From: Geomonas silvestris
GTDB taxonomy: Bacteria > Desulfobacterota > Desulfuromonadia > Geobacterales > Geobacteraceae
Direction: 5' to 3'
DNA: 64,000 nt
NCBI RefSeq assembly: GCF_014193515.1
Contig: NZ_BLXX01000002.1
Span: forward strand, 248,001 to 312,000
Shown: piece after piece, positions 40,418 through 60,374 of the stretch
Layout: every line of letters begins with the position of its first letter
Numbering within the stretch: position 1 is the first letter of the stretch
The notes under the pieces: generated by a model
Database searches by the model: none
Seen by the model: the letters and a program-made list of their open reading frames with translations, nothing else
Told to the model about the DNA's origin: nothing
Made by a program: the position numbers and the translations under genes

Positions 40418-43162
40418 CTAGAATTTCTCGAACGCCTCGTCGCAATCGTCGAGCTCGAGCCGGGTGCCGCGCTGGCTGCGGGTCAGCTTGGGCGTGGTGC
40501 GCGGCACAGGCTTGGCGGAGCGCGCGCCGGTCAGGGGAGACCCGGAGAGCACCGGGGACGCCGCTGCGCCGCTCAGGCTGAAGAAGCTGATGGTGGCCTG
40601 CAGCTGCTCGGACTGCGAGGCGAGCTCCTCCGCGGTCGCGGACATCTGCTCGGCGGCCGAGGCGTTTTGCTGGATCACCTGGTCGAGCTGTTGGATCGCC
40701 TTGTTGATCTGGTCCGAACCGCAGTCCTGCTCCCTGGTCGCCGCCGAGATCTCCTGCACCAGTTCCGCGGTGCGCTGGATGTCGGGGAGCATGGAGCAGA
40801 GCATCTCCCCCGCCTTCTCGGCCACCTCCACGCTGGAGGAGGAGAGCTGGGAAATCTCCGCGGCCGCCTTCTGGGAGCGCTCGGCGAGCTTTCTCACCTC
40901 GCTCGCCACCACGGCGAACCCCTTGCCGTGCTCGCCGGCGCGGGCCGCCTCGATCGCCGCGTTCAGTGCCAAAAGGTTCGTCTGCCGGGCGATCTCCTCG
41001 ATGATCGAGATCTTGCCGGCGATCTCCTTCATGGCCCCGACCGTCTGGGCCACGGCCTTGCCGCCGGCCTGTGCGTCGGAGGCCGATTTCACCGCGATCT
41101 TCTCGGTCTGCAGCGCGTTGTCCGCGCTCTGCCTGATGTTGGCCGCCATCTCCTCCATCGAGGAGGAGGCCTCTTCCGCCGCCGCCGCCTGCTCGGTGGC
41201 CCCCTGCGACATGGCGCCGGCGCTGGCGGACATCTGCTCGCTCCCCGCCGCCACGTTGTCCGCCGCGAGCTTCACCTGGTTCACCACCTCGCCCAGCCTC
41301 TGCACCATCGCGGAGAGCGACTGCATGAGCCGGTCGCTCGGAGAGCGCGCCTCGAGCTTCACGGTGAGGTTCCCCTCGGCCACCTGGCAGGCAGCGTCGG
41401 CGATGGCGTTGGTGGTCTCGATCAGGAGGTTCAGGTTGTTCTTGATGGCGTTGAAGTCGCCGCGGTACTCCTCGCGGATCGGCTCAGGCAGGTCCCCGCG
41501 GGAGATGCGCGCCACGTACTCCGCGGCCACGTTCAAGGGCCCGATCACCGCGTCCAGGGTCTCGTTCACCCCGCTTACGATCCTGCGGTAGTCCCCCTGG
41601 TGCCGCTGCGCGTCGGCGCGGGCGGAAAGCCGCCCCTCCTGGGCGGCCCGGGCCAAGAGGTTCGCGTCCTCGATGAGGGCGTTTATGTTGTCGATGGCGT
41701 TGTTGAGGTTCAGCTTGATCTCGTTGAAGTCCCCCTGGTAGTTCTCGGTGATCTTGGGCGGGATATCCCCCTTGGCGATGCGGTCCACGTACCCCGCGGC
41801 CACGTTCAAGGGCCCGGTCACCGCGTCCAGGGTCCGGTTCACCCCGGAGATGATCTTGCGGAAGTCGCCCTGGTGCCGCTCCTCCGCCGCACGGGTGGCG
41901 AGCCGCCCGGCAAGCGCCGCCTCGACCAGCAGGTTCGCGTCCTCGATGAGGGCGTTTATGTTGTCGATGGCGTTGTTGAGGTTCAGCTTGATCTCGTTGA
42001 AGTCCCCCTGGTAGCTGTCGGTGATCTTGGGGGGGACGTCCCCCTTGGCGATGCGGTCCACGTACTCGGCGGCGACGTTTAGGGGGCCGATCACCGCGTC
42101 CAGGGTGGCGTTCACGCCGGAGATGATCCTGCGGTAGTCCCCTTGGTGGCGCGCGGTGTCGGCGCGGGTGGCGAGCTTGCCGGCCAGGGCCGCGGCGACC
42201 AGGAGGTCGGCGTCCTCGACCAGGGCGTTTATGTTGTCGATGGCGCTGTTCAGGTTGGTCTTCATCTCGTTGAAGTCCCCCTGGTAGCTGTCGGTGATCT
42301 TCTGCGGGATGTCCCCCTTGGAGATGCGGTCCAGGTATTCGGCCGCCATGTTGAGCGGGCCGATGATGGCGTCGAGGGTGGCGTTCATCCCGACGACGAT
42401 CCCCCGGAACTCGGGGTCGATCTGGTCCGCGGCGCCGCGGGTGGCGAGGCGGCCGGCGACCGCGGCCTCGGTGAGCCGCTCGACCTCCTGGATAAGCGAC
42501 CTCAAGATCCCGGCGATCTTGCGGGAGAGGTAGACGGCGGTGCCGACCGCGATGCACAGGATGAGGGCCACCAGCCCCCCCATGAACCAGGAGGCGCGCG
42601 TGAACTTATGGTCGACCACCCCCTTAACGGCATCGAGCCGGGCGTAGCCGTCGGTCGCGAACTCGGCCGCCTGGGCCTCCATCTTGTGGGTCGCCTCCTT
42701 GTACTGCCCCATCGCCTTGTTGGCGTCGGCGGGGGTGCGCAGCTTGCCGTCCAGGATCGCCTGGTACACCTTGGGGAAACCGCTGCGGTACACCTCGAGC
42801 TCGGCCTTGAGTGCCTTGACCCGGTCCCGGTCCTTGGGGTCCGCCGCGACCTTCTCCAGGGTCTTCAGGCGCTCCTGGATGTGCTGCTCCTCCTTCTGCC
42901 ACTTCTCGAAGTACTCTGCCACCTTGTCCGGCGCCCCGATGTTGAGGATGATGTCCTTCTCGAAACGTCTGAGCCCCAGGATGTTGGCGCGGGCCCGGCC
43001 GGCGTGCTGGGCGATCACCCCGTCGCTGTCCAGGTCTTTGCCGATCTCCTGGTTGATGCTTCTCATCCCTAAGAAACCGGTCGCTGCGACCGCGGCCAAA
43101 AGCACCAGCAGTACGCCGAACGCCAGGCTCACCCGCGTTGCGATCTTCATGTTCCCAAACAT
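40418..43162 (-). CDS. Methyl-accepting chemotaxis protein with four tandem 91-residue HAMP-like repeats
   Basis: The 914-residue protein starts at 43162 behind GGGAGG. It has TM1 (~10-30), a helical periplasmic sensor (~35-190), TM2 (~196-215), a first HAMP, then four ~91-residue repeats (each with [21 protein letters not shown] and [18 protein letters not shown]), then the signalling domain ([30 protein letters not shown]) and a tail ending [10 protein letters not shown]. The tip and flanks differ from the other MCPs here (GEHGKGF), indicating another receptor length class. The repeats are poly-HAMP-like and would extend the cytoplasmic stalk. A Cys replaces the usual Gly/Ala before SDQINKAI. 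Confidence 0.88.
41385..42476 (-). repeat. Four in-gene tandem repeats of 273 bp
   Basis: Units begin near 41385, 41658, 41931 and 42204 (exact 273-bp period). The central units keep long identical DNA runs, e.g. the AGGTTCGCGTCCTCGATGAG start at 41658 and 41931; the unit nearest the 3' end is most diverged. They encode the HAMP-like modules of the MCP. Confidence 0.85.
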
Positions 43163-54425: not shown

Positions 54426-54763
54426 GCTACGTTTCCTTATGAAACAGAGGAGCAGTCTCAAAGTGTCGCAATCTCGGGTACCTGCAGCAGCGAGGCCGGC
54501 GGCGCGGGAGAGTCCCGCGGCCTTTCCGGGCCCCCGGCCTCGTGGCCGGCGACCTCTGTCGAAAAATTCTTACAAACACTGCGACACCCAGTACTTGACT
54601 ATGATTCCCTACAGCGGTAACGTGCGTGGGGACCACACTGCGAGTGCAACGCTCGTTTTCGAGACAGCCGCGGCTCTCAGGGCCGAAACCTAGCTGACGA
54701 GTTGCTGGCCCGCCTCCTTTGCGCCGGATGTCGCCGCCCCAACCCGCCACCCCGAGGGAATGT

Positions 54764-57502
54764 ATGGCTTCAGGCGACCGGTTTGCTCCGCCGGATTTCC
54801 GGCTGCTTTTCCAAGGCTCACCGCACCCTTACATGGTGCTCCTTCCCGATTCCCTTTTTACCATCGCCGCTGTCAACGACCGTTATCTCGAGGTGACGGG
54901 TACCCAGCGCGACACGATGGTCGGCCGCGGCCTGTTCCAGGTATTCCCGGACAATCCGGACGACCCCTCGGCCAACGGGGTCAGCGACCTGCGCAGCTCT
55001 CTGGAGCGGGTACTTCGCGACGGCGTGCAGGACACCATGGGGATTCAGAAGTACGACGTCCCCTGCGCCGAGGCTGAAGGGGGCTTCCGGGTGAAATACT
55101 GGAGCCCGGTCAACACCCCGATACCCGGCCCGGATGGGACCGTCGCCTATGTGCTTCACTATGCCGAGGACGTGACGGAGTTTATCCTTTCCCAGCAGCA
55201 AACATCCGACGAGGCGGCCCGACAACTCGGCAATAGCCGGGAAACCGCCCGCATCGAGGCGGAAATTCTCCACCGCGCCAACGAAGTCAAGGAGTCCAAC
55301 CGGCGGCTCAAACTGGCGATGGAGGAACTGGAAAGGAACAAGGCGGAGCTCACCCGTCTCAATCAGAAACTCCACGAACTCGATCGCAGCAAGACCGTCT
55401 TCTTCGGCAACGTGAGCCACGAGCTGCGCACTCCGCTCACCCTTACCCTGGGCCCCCTCGAAGAAATCCTTTCCCGCACCGATTACCCGCTCTCCCCGGC
55501 TGATCGCAACAACCTGTCGATCGCCCACCGCAACGCCCTGCGCCTGCTCAAATTGGTGAACACGCTCCTCGACTTCTCCCGGATCGAGGCCGGGCGCATC
55601 CAGGCGACCTACCGCCCCTGCGACCTCGCCACCCTGACCGCGCAGCTCGCCGGTGTCTTCCGGTCCGCGATCGAGAAGGGGGGACTGGAACTCACCGTCG
55701 ACTGCCCGCCGCTGCCCGAGCCGGTCTTCATCGACCTCTCGATGTGGGAGAAGATCGTCCTCAACCTCCTCTCCAACGCCTTCAAATTCACCCTGAAAGG
55801 GCGCATCAGCGTCTCGCTCCGCTCCACCGGCGCCGGCGCCCGGCTCAGCGTGGCCGACACGGGATGCGGCATTCCAGAGGGAGAACGGGGCAACATCTTC
55901 CAGCGCTTCCACCGCATCGAACAGGCCAAGGGGCGCGCCCACGAGGGGACCGGTATCGGGCTCTCCCTGGTGGACGAGCTGGTGCGGTTGCAGGGAGGCG
56001 AGATCTCGGTTGAGAGCGAGGTCGGTCGGGGCAGCTCCTTCACCGTCACGCTCCCCTACGGCTCGCAGCACCTCCCCCCCGACCAACTAGGAGCGGCGGA
56101 TGCTGGTCCCTCGAGTTCGCCCAATGCCGACCCCTTTTTGGAAGAGGCTCTCCGCTGGCTGCCGGGCGACGAGGGGGGACTTGCCGAGGAGCTGGCAGTG
56201 TCCGCCGACGTTGCCAGACCGCGCCTGCTTCTGGCCGACGACAACGCCGACATGCGGGATTACGTGCAGAGGCTTATGGGTACCTGGTGCGAGATACGCG
56301 CCGTGGCCGACGGCGAGGAGGCTTGGCAGGAGATCTGCCGGCACCGTCCCGATCTTTTGCTGACCGATGTGATGATGCCCCGCCTGGACGGCTTCGGTCT
56401 CCTGGCCCGACTGCGCAACGATCCCCTCACCAGATCTCTGCCGGTCATCATGCTTTCCGCCCGTGCCGGTGAGGAGTCGCGCTCCGAGGGGATCGAGGCC
56501 GGCGCCGACGACTACCTGGTAAAGCCCTTCAGCGCCCGGGAGTTGGTCGCCCGGGTGAAGACCAACCTGGAGATGGCCCGCCTGCGCGAGGAATCGGCAC
56601 GCGCGGCCGAGCACCTCAAAGCCAAGGAAGAGGCGAACGCACACCTGGAGCGGTTGGTCGCCGAACGCACCGACGAATTGGAGGAACACCGGGCCGAACT
56701 GGAGATGCAGAACGAGGAACTGCTGGAGACCTACCGTGACCTGGAAGAGGAGACCGCCCAGAGGGTCCAGGCAGTCGAGCATTTGCGGGAGAAGGAGAAG
56801 CTCCTGCTGCAGCAAAGCCGGATGGCGGCCATGGGAGACATGCTTTTCAACATCGCCCACCAGTGGCGGCAGCCCTTGAACGTCCTGGGTCTCAACGTCC
56901 AGCAGCTCGGACTCCTCTACGAGGTAGGAGAGCTCAACCAGGAAACTCTCGACCAGGCTATCGCGCGCTCGCTGGAGATCATTGGCCATCTCTCCAAAAC
57001 AATCAACGACTTCACCTGCTTCTCGAAGCCGGACAAGGACAAGACGGTTTTCCTGGTGGCAGACGCCGTGTCAAAAACGCTCTCCCTGGTAGCTGCCGGT
57101 TTCGAGGAGCAGCGTATCGCTCTCACCGTCGAGGTGTCCGGGGAACCGGAGATCCGTGGTTACCCCAACGAGTTCTCCCAGGTACTCCTCAATATCCTGA
57201 TGAATGCCATGGATGCCCTGGTGGAGCGCGAGACCCGCGACGGGCGGGTCACGTTGCGCGCCGTGAGCCAAGACGGAAGAGCCGTGGTGATCATTACCGA
57301 CAACGCGGGGGGGATCGATCCCGAGATCCTGCCCAGGGTTTTCGACCCGTTCTTCACCACCAAGGCGCAGGGGAAAGGGACCGGCATCGGCCTGTTCCTC
57401 GCCAAATCCATTGTTGAGAAGAGCATGGGCGGCTGGCTCAAGGCCCGCAATACCGCCGACGGCGCCGAGTTCACTATCGAGGTGAGCAATGGAAACCCTT
57501 AA
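54764..57502 (+). CDS. Hybrid sensor kinase with two kinase cores: PAS-HisKA-HATPase-REC-HisKA-HATPase
   Basis: The 912-residue soluble protein (start at 54764, GAGGG site) has a PAS domain (~15-140), coiled coil (~150-208), first kinase core with His219 (NVSHELRTPLTL), N box (LNLLSNAFKF) and G boxes (DTGCGIPE, GTGIGLSLV), a receiver (~486-600) with Asp535 (LLTDVMMPR) and Lys in VKPFS, a second coiled coil (~605-685), and a second core with His699 (FNIAHQWRQPLNVLG), N box (LNILMNAMDAL) and G boxes (DNAGGIDP, GTGIGLFLAK). Two full kinase cores around a receiver are uncommon. It overlaps the next response-regulator gene by 14 bases. Confidence 0.9.
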   Translation: MASGDRFAPPDFRLLFQGSPHPYMVLLPDSLFTIAAVNDRYLEVTGTQRDTMVGRGLFQVFPDNPDDPSANGVSDLRSSLERVLRDGVQDTMGIQKYDVPCAEAEGGFRVKYWSPVNTPIPGPDGTVAYVLHYAEDVTEFILSQQQTSDEAARQLGNSRETARIEAEILHRANEVKESNRRLKLAMEELERNKAELTRLNQKLHELDRSKTVFFGNVSHELRTPLTLTLGPLEEILSRTDYPLSPADRNNLSIAHRNALRLLKLVNTLLDFSRIEAGRIQATYRPCDLATLTAQLAGVFRSAIEKGGLELTVDCPPLPEPVFIDLSMWEKIVLNLLSNAFKFTLKGRISVSLRSTGAGARLSVADTGCGIPEGERGNIFQRFHRIEQAKGRAHEGTGIGLSLVDELVRLQGGEISVESEVGRGSSFTVTLPYGSQHLPPDQLGAADAGPSSSPNADPFLEEALRWLPGDEGGLAEELAVSADVARPRLLLADDNADMRDYVQRLMGTWCEIRAVADGEEAWQEICRHRPDLLLTDVMMPRLDGFGLLARLRNDPLTRSLPVIMLSARAGEESRSEGIEAGADDYLVKPFSARELVARVKTNLEMARLREESARAAEHLKAKEEANAHLERLVAERTDELEEHRAELEMQNEELLETYRDLEEETAQRVQAVEHLREKEKLLLQQSRMAAMGDMLFNIAHQWRQPLNVLGLNVQQLGLLYEVGELNQETLDQAIARSLEIIGHLSKTINDFTCFSKPDKDKTVFLVADAVSKTLSLVAAGFEEQRIALTVEVSGEPEIRGYPNEFSQVLLNILMNAMDALVERETRDGRVTLRAVSQDGRAVVIITDNAGGIDPEILPRVFDPFFTTKAQGKGTGIGLFLAKSIVEKSMGGWLKARNTADGAEFTIEVSNGNP

Positions 57503-57893
57503 CCCGCGAACTTCTTTTTCACTTCTCTACGTGGAAGACGATCCCGAGGCGCGCACCCTGGTGGCAAAGGCGCTCTCCATGAAGTTCCGGCAGTTGCGGC
57601 TCTTCAGCGCAGAGAACGGCGCCGAAGGGCTGCGGCTTTACCAGGAACATCGCCCGGACATCGTTCTCACCGACATCAAGATGCCGGAGATGGACGGCAT
57701 CACCATGGCAGGCAGGATCCGGGAGATACACGACGGTGCGGTTATCTGCGTTTTATCCGCCTACTGTGACGCCCAGGAATTCCAAAAGCAGGCCGATGAA
57801 CTCAACCTGTCCCACTGCCTGGCAAAGCCCGTCGATTACCGCACCCTCTTTGCCACCATAGATTCTTGTCTTGCCACAGTTGTCGATGGTTGA
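57489..57893 (+). CDS. Single-domain response regulator coupled to the hybrid kinase
   Basis: The 134-residue receiver has acidic residues in VEDDPE, phospho-acceptor Asp62 (IVLTDIKMPEMDG) and Lys in LAKPVD; a Ser occupies the Thr/Ser switch (VLSAY). There is no output domain. Its start lies inside the last codons of the hybrid kinase (14-base overlap) behind GAGGTGAG, so it is translationally coupled and is the most likely target of the second kinase core. Confidence 0.9.
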   Translation: METLNPRTSFSLLYVEDDPEARTLVAKALSMKFRQLRLFSAENGAEGLRLYQEHRPDIVLTDIKMPEMDGITMAGRIREIHDGAVICVLSAYCDAQEFQKQADELNLSHCLAKPVDYRTLFATIDSCLATVVDG

Positions 57894-57968: not shown

Positions 57969-58410
57969 CATTTCTCGACTGCCAAGTTCCATTTTTCTTC
58001 ACGTGAGTCCAAACTTTCAGAGCGAGAAATGAAAACTCTCGCTGCAAGTTTCACTTGTGCTCCCTGAAGTTTAGATGTTGCCCAGGCAAAACGAAACTTC
58101 CGGGGAAGAGTTTCATTTCAATGCCCCTTAGTTTCGATAGTCGCGGTTAAAGTTTCTTTTTTTGCTCCTCTAAAGGAAACTTCTGGCCAAGAGTTTTGAT
58201 TTCCAGTCTGCTAAATCAAACTTTTCTCGGAAAGTTTGATTTTCTGCTGCATAAATTCAAACTTTTTTGCCTCAGTTTGATTTTTCCGTCATGAGGTTTC
58301 ATTTTCCCGTGACACAATTCAAAGTTCCAAACCGGGAAAGGAAACTTCTGCTCAAAAGTTTTTATTTTGAGGCCATCTAGAGAAACTTTTGCTTCGCACG
58401 ATAAAACCTG
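57969..58410. repeat. Phased array of ~11 degenerate palindromic units, period 41-42 bp
   Basis: Each unit is built on CAAACTT (or GAAACTT), ~7 bases, then AAGTTTGATTT, then a ~17-base spacer. Left arms start at 58010, 58093, 58176, 58217, 58258, 58341 and 58382; the gaps are 41 or 83 (two units), so the register is kept through degenerate units near 57969, 58051, 58134 and 58299, where often only the right arm survives (e.g. 57984, 58067, 58150). The best unit is a 12-bp perfect inverted repeat (58213-58224 and 58231-58242). The stretch is AT-rich and contains no gene. It is not CRISPR: arms are degenerate and the period is too short. Confidence 0.8.
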
Positions 58411-58484
58411 CACTAGATAAGTAAGTGTCGTACGCGGATGGATTTTTTAGGCGGGAATAGGAAAAAAAAGAGAGGTGACATGAG

Positions 58485-58549
58485 AAGGCCGGCGTCGGAA
58501 ACCCGAAGCTCCTTTTATGGGCTCCCGGATTCGGCACCGGCCTTTTTTT
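58485..58549 (+). terminator. Rho-independent terminator after the 41-bp array
   Basis: AAGGCCGG (58485-58492) pairs with CCGGCCTT (58537-58544), with an inner paired region (GAAGCTCC/GGGCTCCC) and a T7 run. Orientation is plus, so a transcript crossing the array would end here. Confidence 0.75.
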
Positions 58550-58574
58550 CTTACCGCCGTGGCAATTGCGTTAT

Positions 58575-59237
58575 CTAAGTTACAATGATTCCCACCACTG
58601 CGCTCCACGGGCTAGTCTCATTGTCGCCGTGACTCCTGACCCTGAAAAAGTACCAACAGGCACGTTCCAGGTTTTTGATGAGAGGTCGAACGGTCTTGAA
58701 ATTTGCGTAATCCCTCCAAGAGTCCTCGCCTGTCGGTTGGCCTTTGCAGAATTGTACTTGGTACCCGCCTGCGCCAAGATCTCGCTGGATCTTCAGCCTT
58801 ACAGCACCGTCATCAGCCCGTTCAACCTCTAGTTTCAGGGGATCCCTTGAAACGGATACATGCTGGTGGGGCCTTTTGGTCTTCTCCTTCACCTCCTTCA
58901 CCTCATACCCCATTCCGTACAACAGGGAGTTGTCCTTTGCAGCCTTCGCGCGCAAGACGAGGTAGGACGTGTTGATGTCGATGGAGTGGAAGGTCGCTGC
59001 CTGCTCCTCATCGCGCTGCTTCATTTTCAAGGTGTCCTTGTTTTCCGCTGCTGTCTCCAAATCGGAGAGGGTAGCTGCATGTTCCCTAAAATGCCGGGCA
59101 CCGTGCACCCAATCCGGGAAAGTGCTGCCATGGAAGGGATGTTTTTCCTGAAGGGCTGCGGTACCGAGGCACCAGGTGATAAGTTCCCGGGGGGTCATTT
59201 TGTGGAAGTTCATGACGAAGATGTCGTTCGCTGACAT
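58575..59237 (-). CDS. Hypothetical protein with C-terminal FN3-like domain
   Basis: The 220-residue protein has no signal peptide. Residues ~1-80 are helical (PRELITWCLGTAALQEKHP). From ~125 the sequence reads as a fibronectin type III domain: SRDPLKLEVERADDGAVRLKIQ, GGYQVQFCKG, then YFFRVRSHGDNETSPWS, the usual closing motif. AGGAGG lies 8 bases before the ATG. The family has no known role in my memory. It is convergent with the terminated plus-strand transcript crossing the array. Confidence 0.65.
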   Translation of the reverse strand: MSANDIFVMNFHKMTPRELITWCLGTAALQEKHPFHGSTFPDWVHGARHFREHAATLSDLETAAENKDTLKMKQRDEEQAATFHSIDINTSYLVLRAKAAKDNSLLYGMGYEVKEVKEKTKRPHQHVSVSRDPLKLEVERADDGAVRLKIQRDLGAGGYQVQFCKGQPTGEDSWRDYANFKTVRPLIKNLERACWYFFRVRSHGDNETSPWSAVVGIIVT

Positions 59238-59504
59238 GTGGCCACCTCCTTGTCTTAAAGCATGCTCATCATTTTAAGATTCCACCGACGGGTGTCAAGC
59301 AACTTTATTGTTTTTTTCTAACCCTTCTTTACTACCTCTTTCGGCCCCGTCGCCCTACCAGTGGACAACGGTCCTCTACAAGACCTGCTCCCGCTTGCAC
59401 AGCGCGTTCTTGCGCCTAAACTTAGTAGCTGCCCATGCCGCCCCCGCCCGGGCCTCACAGCCCCCTCTGCCGACCGCAAGGACCTTACCTACGTGGAGGT
59501 CGCT

Positions 59505-60374
59505 ATGGATCGCGAAGATGAAGAGGTCTGCGTCCTGAAGGAGTTGGAGATCTTCATGGAAGAGCTCATGCAGGCACACATGCGCCACGAGAAAGAAGGG
59601 AACGAAGAACGCTCCCGGATGGCCTTGGCCCAGATTTATCTCTGCAACGAGATATTCCAGCTCTACCAGAAGAACTCGGACTGGGAGGACTTCACCGGAA
59701 GGCTCGAGGACTACGTTTACTCGGAAATGGATCGTTACCAGGAAGCCCGCGGCAACGGCGAAAAGGGAAAGGCGCGGTTGATGCTCGCCAGGGTGCGCTG
59801 TACCCGACGACTGCTGGCACGGCTCAACAACCCTTCGCGGCAAGAAATCCATTCCAAGTTGGGCTTCTTTCCTGCGAGAACTTTTTCCGAGGCTGCGCTG
59901 AACCAACCGGACCTTCCGGAGAAATTCCAGGAAGCTCAACAAAAGACGCTGCTTTACGAAAGCATAGAACGGTTCCAGAGAGGCGAGGATCCCCGCACCA
60001 TCAACCGTGAACAGAAACGGCTGGAATACGAAGCGGCGAGGCTGCAAAAGGAGGTAACAGCCAGGTCCCGCAAAATCCGGCCAGGCAATGAGGCCTACGA
60101 GCGCTTTGTCGAGGCTCAGGGGCACATTTTCCCCGCCATCGAGCAGAACATCGCCGAACCTAAGCTGTGGCACAAATTCCGCGAGTTTCTCTGGGAGCTC
60201 ATCGAGCGGAGCGAACTTAGCTACCGGGTGGCACGGGAGTGCGACGATTACGAGGTGGCCCTGATGGAGCTTGGCCGCATGCGGTGCGCCGGATGGCTTT
60301 TGAGGAGGATTCGGGAGCCGATCCGCCGGAGGGAGATCTGCAGGCAGATCGAACAGGCGCTCGTGATTCATTGA
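59505..60374 (+). CDS. Helical hypothetical protein
   Basis: The ATG at 59505 is chosen for its GGAGGT site; the product is 289 residues, soluble, almost entirely alpha helical and strongly charged (many Glu, Arg). Two halves show loosely similar helix-rich patterns (AQIYLCNEIFQLYQK / LGRMRCAGWLLRRI). No motif identifies an enzyme. The gene is monocistronic with its own terminator. It is not recognised as a named family. Confidence 0.65.
   Translation: MDREDEEVCVLKELEIFMEELMQAHMRHEKEGNEERSRMALAQIYLCNEIFQLYQKNSDWEDFTGRLEDYVYSEMDRYQEARGNGEKGKARLMLARVRCTRRLLARLNNPSRQEIHSKLGFFPARTFSEAALNQPDLPEKFQEAQQKTLLYESIERFQRGEDPRTINREQKRLEYEAARLQKEVTARSRKIRPGNEAYERFVEAQGHIFPAIEQNIAEPKLWHKFREFLWELIERSELSYRVARECDDYEVALMELGRMRCAGWLLRRIREPIRRREICRQIEQALVIH

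What the first reader, a model, noticed from the sequence alone, without database searches (positions are those of the whole stretch)
57969..58410. Strictly phased array of palindromic AAACTT/AAGTTT units in a gene-free AT-rich island
About eleven units keep a 41-42 bp register over ~440 bp (left-arm starts 58010 to 58382 average 41.3 bp, close to four helical turns), although individual units are degenerate. Conserved arms with variable spacers and exact phase suggest selection for a set of sites on one DNA face, as for a cooperatively binding protein, or a transcribed string of AU-rich hairpins. It follows a kinase/response-regulator operon and precedes a strong plus-strand terminator. It does not fit CRISPR, REP or simple satellite repeats, and I know of no described equivalent.
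Basis: partly seen in the sequence, partly recalled or inferred. Interest (0 to 1): 0.8.

Follow-up and report, generated by a model that had tools for sequence, protein, structure and literature searches.

The report
Gene-linked DNA arrays in helical phase
Downstream of most examined copies of one uncharacterised protein gene family, soil bacteria of the genus Geomonas carry a short array of DNA repeats that is almost always spaced at one or two turns of the double helix although its sequence differs from copy to copy, which points to a previously undescribed protein-and-DNA module.

Summary
The array is real, but its unit is 20.7 bp, not 41: eight AAACTT-like and ten AAGTTT-like sites lie within 1.1 bp of a 20.69-bp lattice (0 of 2000 random sets). 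The kinase operon before it is incidental: the one close relative found (G008) lacks the array. The partner is the gene on the other side (58575-59237, minus), of an uncharacterised family of ~200-230-aa proteins (helical N-terminus, FN3 C-terminus), 6-20 copies in each Geomonas genome searched and in Geomesophilobacter, 0-2 copies elsewhere. Of 81 members picked by protein alone, 56 have a periodic array 3' of the gene (61 of 87 with seeds; 3 of 100 control segments). In 60 of these 61 the period is 10.0-10.6 or 19.9-21.5 bp; one is 42.2. Paralogous arrays in one genome share almost no sequence; orthologous ones can turn over fast and keep the period. Solo arrays also occur. Unit dyads and curvature are not general. 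Most likely (~0.4) the array is a docking platform on one DNA face for the neighbouring protein, as parC is for ParR; DNA binding is not shown. Main rival: a selfish satellite with a hitch-hiking gene.

The parts
57984..58388 (.). helically phased array: AAACTT-like and AAGTTT-like sites on one 20.69-bp lattice (8 + 10 sites between 58011 and 58388; a degenerate site already at 57984)
   Evidence: autocorrelation; spectrum; lattice fit; only such segment in the window; start at 57984 read by eye
58575..59237 (-). partner gene, 220 aa: helical N-terminal domain + C-terminal fibronectin type III domain; member of a multicopy Geomonas family
   Evidence: homology to array-adjacent genes; family searches; models; FN3 fold
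59271..59298 (-). sigma-70-like promoter before the partner gene (TTGACA-16-TAAAAT, 11 of 12)
   Evidence: consensus match only
58481..58549 (+). hairpin between gene and array with a T-run on the plus strand; probably a terminator for plus-strand transcripts
   Evidence: fold -42.9 kcal/mol for 58471-58565; sequence; not reported by the simple terminator scan
54719..57502 (+). hybrid histidine kinase (PAS_4, HisKA, HATPase, receiver); neighbour, judged not part of the module
   Evidence: Pfam; ortholog in G008 without the array
57489..57893 (+). single-domain response regulator; neighbour, judged not part of the module
   Evidence: Pfam

Best explanation
The array is the DNA half of a two-part chromosomal module; the other half is the FN3-family protein encoded beside it. 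SHOWN: gene-array linkage; a one- or two-turn period in nearly every linked array; almost no shared sequence between paralogous arrays of one genome; fast turnover of array sequence with the period kept at some orthologous sites; a hairpin right after the gene, with the array beyond it, so the array is probably not part of that mRNA. INFERRED: the protein, alone or with a partner, binds the array so that 10-20 copies stand side by side on one face of the DNA, with the unit length fixed by the helix and the sequence free to drift or co-evolve. INFERRED: this ordered row serves as an anchoring, clustering or segregation hub at gene ends, as ParR does on parC; solo arrays elsewhere would be extra docking sites.
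For: Linkage: of 67 distinct members 49 have a periodic array within 900 bp 3' of the gene, 9 have a signal within 900 bp 5', and 3 of 100 control segments have one; without the six seed loci 44 of 61. A second batch gave 12 of 20 within 1000 bp (one exactly at threshold). Fisher test on 61 of 87 v 3 of 100: p = 1.8e-24, related rows not removed. Period: in a scan of 8.5-60 bp all 49 lie at 10.0-10.6 or 19.9-21.5; one search adds 11 of 12 there and one at 42.2. Private sequence: median 0 shared 9-mers between paralogous arrays in each of three genomes. Coupling: Spearman correlation of protein identity with shared 6-mers is 0.33 for arrays and -0.09 for the gene-array spacer; at 60-70% identity (8 pairs) arrays share 0.28, spacers 0.12. 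Phase outlives sequence: L063/L071 arrays are 69% identical (shuffled mean 61%, maximum 65%) and L072/L179 74% (65%, 71%), with flanks 86-89% identical, and all four keep 10- or 20-bp units. Six of 21 solo arrays share a unit with a linked array of the same genome, 3 of 18 when found independently. Median pI 8.7 (75 proteins).
Against: No DNA binding is shown and no DNA-binding fold was found; the N-terminal model is a generic helical bundle and that half is slightly acidic (median net charge -3). Of five G001/G012 gene pairs with collinear flanks two have arrays without a shared 9-mer; for one, L148/L135, the proteins are 80% identical and the 6-mer sharing is 0.15. Strict sequence recognition does not predict this. 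At 80-100% protein identity arrays are hardly more or even less alike than spacers. 17 of 87 members have no signal on either side (11 of 67; 6 of 20); nine more have one only 5' of the gene, not all at helical periods (L114 19.2, L158 30.2). 13 of 21 solo arrays match no linked array held, though the sets are incomplete. One linked array has two solo copies that are 89-93% identical blocks of 350-390 bp, so shared units can come from copying.
Confidence: 0.42

Rival explanations
1. Selfish, satellite-like DNA. The arrays multiply in place and disperse as copies; helical spacing reflects the machinery that makes or tolerates them. The FN3 gene is cargo or a neighbour carried along and does not read the array.
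For: Solo arrays without the gene; one linked array in G000 (L251) with two solo copies of 350-390 bp, 89-93% identical, with common ends and imperfect terminal inverted repeats; arrays present or absent between close species (0 of 18 congeners have one after transaldolase); fast sequence turnover at some orthologous sites.
Against: A satellite has no reason to sit next to most examined members of one gene family, nor to keep one- or two-turn spacing in unrelated sequences. At intermediate divergence array sequence tracks protein identity better than linked spacer DNA does. Nine gene pairs of sister species are collinear, so linked arrays do not simply jump with the gene.
Confidence: 0.28
2. 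Shape platform. Phased AT tracts at gene ends make curved or supercoil-absorbing DNA, or bind a general nucleoid protein of the IHF/HU type; the FN3 protein is not the reader.
For: The period equals one or two helical turns; 18 of 49 linked arrays are more curved than column-permuted versions of themselves at p <= 0.05, where about 2-3 are expected, and 25 of 49 exceed dinucleotide shuffles.
Against: 31 of 49 are not more curved than the column-permuted control, including the window array (curvature 1.05, p 0.82; wedge parameters recalled, 60 permutations each). Many units hold a single AT tract. It does not explain the link to one gene family.
Confidence: 0.17
3. Transcribed string of hairpins: the array acts as an RNA, for example a sponge, a processed small RNA or a type III antitoxin-like repeat RNA.
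For: The window array and its solo relative fold better than shuffles: z = -4.8 (+), -2.7 (-), and -8.6 for L028 (+); a plus-strand hairpin with T-run follows the window array.
Against: Unit dyads are not general (7 of 71); many arrays are direct repeats; a hairpin separates gene from array in 43 of 49; no Rfam family at gathering score in 20 loci except a tRNA and only sub-threshold matches at the window.
Confidence: 0.08

Closest known systems
ParR-parC centromeres of ParMRC plasmid partition systems
   Same: An array of direct repeats of about one or two helical turns (10 bp in pB171, 11 bp in R1, 20 bp in pSK41; 17 bp in pCW3) read by a protein encoded nearby; families of paralogous adaptors that cannot bind noncognate arrays (PMC9426499, passages read).
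   Different: Here the protein is a helical domain plus FN3, with no ribbon-helix-helix in any library searched; no ParM-like NTPase among six neighbours of the window array scanned; 6-20 chromosomal copies per genome; the array is mostly 3' of the gene, not upstream of parM; solo arrays exist; binding not shown.
Intergenic multicopy direct repeats of Geobacter bemidjiensis (2010)
   Same: Direct repeats of 6-42 nt and palindromic families in intergenic regions of a relative, function unknown; multicopy sequences in 12% of intergenic regions (PMC2996986, passages read).
   Different: No link to a gene family and no helical phasing is mentioned in the passages read; the supplementary tables could not be read here. 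The triplicated FN3 genes of that paper are described as GEMM-riboswitch controlled and possibly on the outer surface; no GEMM match was found in 20 loci here.
Replication iterons read by Rep proteins (recalled)
   Same: Directly repeated sites of about 17-22 bp in helical register, encoded near the protein that binds them.
   Different: No Rep or winged-helix family was hit in the libraries searched; many copies per chromosome.
REP/BIME elements of enterobacteria (recalled)
   Same: Multicopy intergenic elements, often at 3' gene ends.
   Different: GC-rich palindromes, not helically phased arrays and not tied to an FN3 gene.

Membership tests
ParMRC-type partition centromere | array of direct repeats in helical register next to a small gene | tested here: met
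ParMRC-type partition centromere | adaptor with a ribbon-helix-helix (or winged-helix) DNA-binding domain | tested here: inconclusive
   Pfam, NCBIfam, PHROGs and PADLOC give only FN3-type or chance-level matches; the N-terminal model has no clear match; absence from such lists does not exclude it
ParMRC-type partition centromere | gene for an actin- or tubulin-like NTPase in the operon | tested here: not met
   for the window locus only: six neighbours scanned are hybrid kinase, response regulator, a 337-aa protein without Pfam match, receiver-GGDEF, LysE, cytochrome-like
ParMRC-type partition centromere | specific binding of adaptor to array | not testable with these tools
   needs EMSA, SPR or ChIP
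CRISPR array | near-identical repeats separated by unrelated spacers of constant length | tested here: not met
   window units are degenerate on a 20.7-bp lattice with no repeat/spacer division; many other arrays are uniform direct repeats
Type III toxin-antitoxin (ToxIN-like; definition recalled) | RNA repeat array transcribed upstream of the toxin gene with a terminator between | tested here: not met
   the array is 3' of the gene beyond a hairpin in most members; a minority have it 5'; transcription itself not testable
Known structured RNA family | covariance-model match at gathering score | tested here: not met
   no match over arrays at the window (only sub-threshold) or in 20 loci
Transposon / MITE | discrete dispersed copies with common ends, terminal inverted repeats and target-site duplication | tested here: inconclusive
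   one array family in G000 has three copies with common ends and imperfect inverted termini; duplications were not established; the window array has no full-length copy in its genome, only short matches in L028
Intrinsically curved DNA | predicted curvature above composition- and period-matched controls | tested here: not met
   for the window array: p 0.82 against column permutation; 18 of 49 linked arrays do exceed it

The most novel reading that the evidence does not exclude
Geomonas chromosomes carry a multicopy set of private protein-satellite pairs: each FN3-family paralog has its own short satellite whose sequence turns over quickly but whose repeat length is held to one or two turns of the double helix, so that the protein assembles in a row on one DNA face. 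It would be a bacterial counterpart of centromeric satellites, where unit length matters more than sequence.
Probability: 0.38. Interest if true: 0.92.

Novelty: categorically new. Interest (0 to 1): 0.8.

Why it matters
A gene family and a class of repeat, both without known function, turn out to belong together, and the feature they share is geometric: helical phase without common sequence. If the protein reads the array, it is a new kind of sequence-plastic DNA-docking system present in 6-20 copies per chromosome of iron-reducing soil bacteria, and orthologous sites in sister species would allow tests of how a protein and its satellite co-evolve. If it does not, the arrays pose the question of what keeps a satellite at two helical turns. 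It also gives a lead on intergenic direct repeats whose meaning was left open in 2010 for Geobacter bemidjiensis.

Tried and rejected
Link to the kinase operon: rejected; at E <= 1e-150 the kinase was found in 1 of 18 congeners (G008, 83% identity), where the response regulator is followed by no array and the 11.5-kb locus holds no FN3-family ORF.

In one search five minus-strand transaldolase loci were read on the wrong side; one search repeats the test with strand. The first arrays were found with an AAACTT pattern and are biased to that core; of 22 sources then scanned 16 passed power 4.5 at periods 19-23. The counts are of members selected by protein, except six seeds found through arrays among the 67 (five with a downstream array). 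Orthologs from close species are not independent. 87 of the 224 matches tallied were examined: the loci returned first plus others taken from the lists, the last 20 from four genomes. Left out before the count: L061 (473 aa, weak match), L079 (partial gene), L122 (no complete ORF matched), identical proteins. Controls: 3 of 100 segments passed (periods 15.6, 20.6, 9.0); the 20.6 one (L090) is the solo array L067. In 400 kb of the own genome seven segments passed power 5: two at 21.1 and 21.5, five at 9.5, 33.9, 36.5, 51.7 and 59.9, which by eye look like other repeats. Pfam fn3 passes its curated cut-off in 2 of 12 members scanned and not in the window protein; there FN3 rests on the model and profile.

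Literature: no paper holds the terms (0 each; one search asked for five of six terms); one search listed three, of which only the G. bemidjiensis paper was read (passages). So 'not in print' rests on (listing; listing), 61, 80 and 82 in open-access text only. PMC2700814 and PMC9426499: passages read; listing.

Full report
THE OBSERVATION. The stretch 57969-58410 is periodic far above chance: autocorrelation z = 6.9, 6.5, 7.1 and 6.3 at lags 41, 62, 83 and 124, against at most 4.0 in 500 dinucleotide shuffles. Eight AAACTT-like (7 exact) and ten AAGTTT-like (5 exact, 5 with one mismatch) sites fit one 20.69-bp lattice with residuals up to 1.1 and 0.6 bp, the two motifs offset by 14.1 bp; no random placement of 2000 did as well. 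Some slots hold both arms and look palindromic, others hold one. Nothing else in the 64 kb reaches the same periodogram power.

A SECOND ARRAY AND MORE. The own genome holds a second array with the same core and the same 20.7-bp period, between a transaldolase and a VTT-domain (DedA-like) gene (C5:315121-315520; Pfam). A pattern search in 39 genomes, biased to the AAACTT core, showed further arrays of 20-21-bp units in the genus. Of 22 sources scanned, 16 held segments of period 20.1-21.2 bp above threshold, with mostly different unit sequences.

CONTEXT. The kinase/response-regulator operon is not the partner. Among 18 congeners only G008 has the kinase at E <= 1e-150 (83% identity), and there the operon is followed by neither array nor FN3 gene. 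Likewise 0 of 18 congeners have an array after transaldolase. On the other side of the window array lies a minus-strand gene, 58575-59237. It is homologous to genes beside five other arrays (BLASTP E 7.5e-13 to 9.5e-10).

THE GENE FAMILY. A profile of those six proteins found members in all 19 genomes of the genus searched and in three others of the family (22 of 58 genomes; G020 has 1 match and G023 has 2). A wider profile at E <= 1e-8 found 17 of 146 genomes of the class, 16 in the genus and G024. Copy numbers in the genus and G024 are 6-20. Named records place the genus as Geomonas and G024 as Geomesophilobacter sediminis (contig lengths agree). The proteins have a variable helical N-terminal part and a conserved FN3 C-terminal domain. 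NCBIfam, PHROGs and PADLOC give only chance-level matches or FN3 stretches of tail proteins. The median pI is 8.7. One member gave no match in phage and plasmid collections, and a profile none in viral contigs.

THE LINK. I then asked, for members chosen by protein, whether an array follows. In the first set 49 of 67 distinct members have a periodic signal within 900 bp 3' of the gene (44 of 61 without the six seeds), 9 of 67 have one 5', and 3 of 100 control segments have one. In a second set 12 of 20 do, one exactly at threshold. Over a scan from 8.5 to 60 bp the 49 periods all fall at 10.0-10.6 or 19.9-21.5; of the 12, 11 do and one is 42.2. Seven of 67 have a signal only 5' of the gene (L078, L107, L108, L159, L161 at 10.5-10.6 or 20.8; L114 at 19.2; L158 at 30.2), and two of 20 (L233, L241). 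No signal at all: 11 of 67 and 6 of 20. The usual order is gene, hairpin just after the stop codon (75 nt with z <= -2 against shuffles in 43 of 49), then the array; the strongest 207-bp stretch starts a median of 170 bp after the stop.

SEQUENCE FREE, PHASE FIXED. Arrays of paralogs in one genome share a median of 0 9-mers (three genomes). Between genomes array similarity rises with protein identity while the spacer between gene and array does not until identity is high. At two orthologous sites with flanks 86-89% identical the arrays have drifted almost to chance similarity (69% v shuffled at most 65%; 74% v at most 71%), yet all four keep 10- or 20-bp units; two other orthologous arrays are 92-95% identical. 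Against a simple lock-and-key view, two of five collinear G001/G012 pairs have arrays that share no 9-mer.

SOLO ARRAYS. Twenty 20-kb stretches of the own genome, 400 kb, held two phased arrays, neither in a stretch with an FN3-family ORF; scaled up this is roughly 25 per genome, very uncertain. Of 21 solo arrays compared, six share at least 20 9-mers with a linked array of the same genome; three of these had been found by searching with it. Two more match the linked array of a sister species, and 13 match none held. One linked array (L251) has two solo copies of 350-390 bp, 89-93% identical, with common ends, so arrays can spread by copying.

WHAT WAS EXCLUDED. Dyad symmetry of the unit is not general (7 of 71). 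Predicted curvature exceeds a period-matched control in 18 of 49 but not in the window array (wedge parameters recalled). The window array and its relative do fold well as RNA; I take this to follow from their inverted arms, which most arrays lack.

MECHANISM. The best reading is a docking array: copies of the linked FN3 protein, or a partner it brings, stand in a row on one face of the DNA, which explains why period is kept and sequence is not. It resembles ParR on parC, where repeats of 10, 11, 17 or 20 bp are used and different families do not cross-react (PMC9426499, passages). It is not filed as a ParMRC system, since the window locus has no NTPase gene among the neighbours scanned and no adaptor fold was recognised. 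DNA binding is inferred. The strongest rival is a selfish satellite with a hitch-hiking gene.

NOVELTY. The 2010 Geobacter bemidjiensis genome paper noted direct repeats of 6-42 nt in intergenic regions and left their meaning open (PMC2996986, passages). I found no report of the gene link or the helical phasing in the searches named.

Noticed in passing
41504-42392: Tandem repeat of 273 bp, 3.3 copies, 84% matches (TRF score 1183).
   Followed up: no
L251:2751-3137, L253:1501-1886, L254:1501-1849 (genome G000): Three copies of one 350-390-bp array block with common ends, imperfect terminal inverted repeats (GTCACCCAAAA / TTTTGGGGTTAC) and a hairpin TGCAATTATCT..AGATAATTGCA at one end; looks mobile.
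   Followed up: partly
L179:1483-1745 and L072:5262-5432: Same place (between genes that look EamA-like and SbcC-like; names recalled, from no call) carries arrays of different unit in two species, each sharing its unit with an FN3-linked array of its own genome.
   Followed up: partly
L062, L067, L069, L074, L075, L077: GC-richer solo arrays of a 21-bp unit like GCAACGTGCGCGTACAAACTT in four genomes, with no linked FN3 array of that type among those held.
   Followed up: no
L065 and L066: A phased array sits between two same-strand genes that look like ruvA and ruvB (names recalled, from no call) in two sister species, 92% identical.
   Followed up: no
59361-60374: 337-aa plus-strand protein next to the FN3 gene has no Pfam match at E <= 0.001, but most of its DNA aligns with G008 at 80%.
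   Followed up: no
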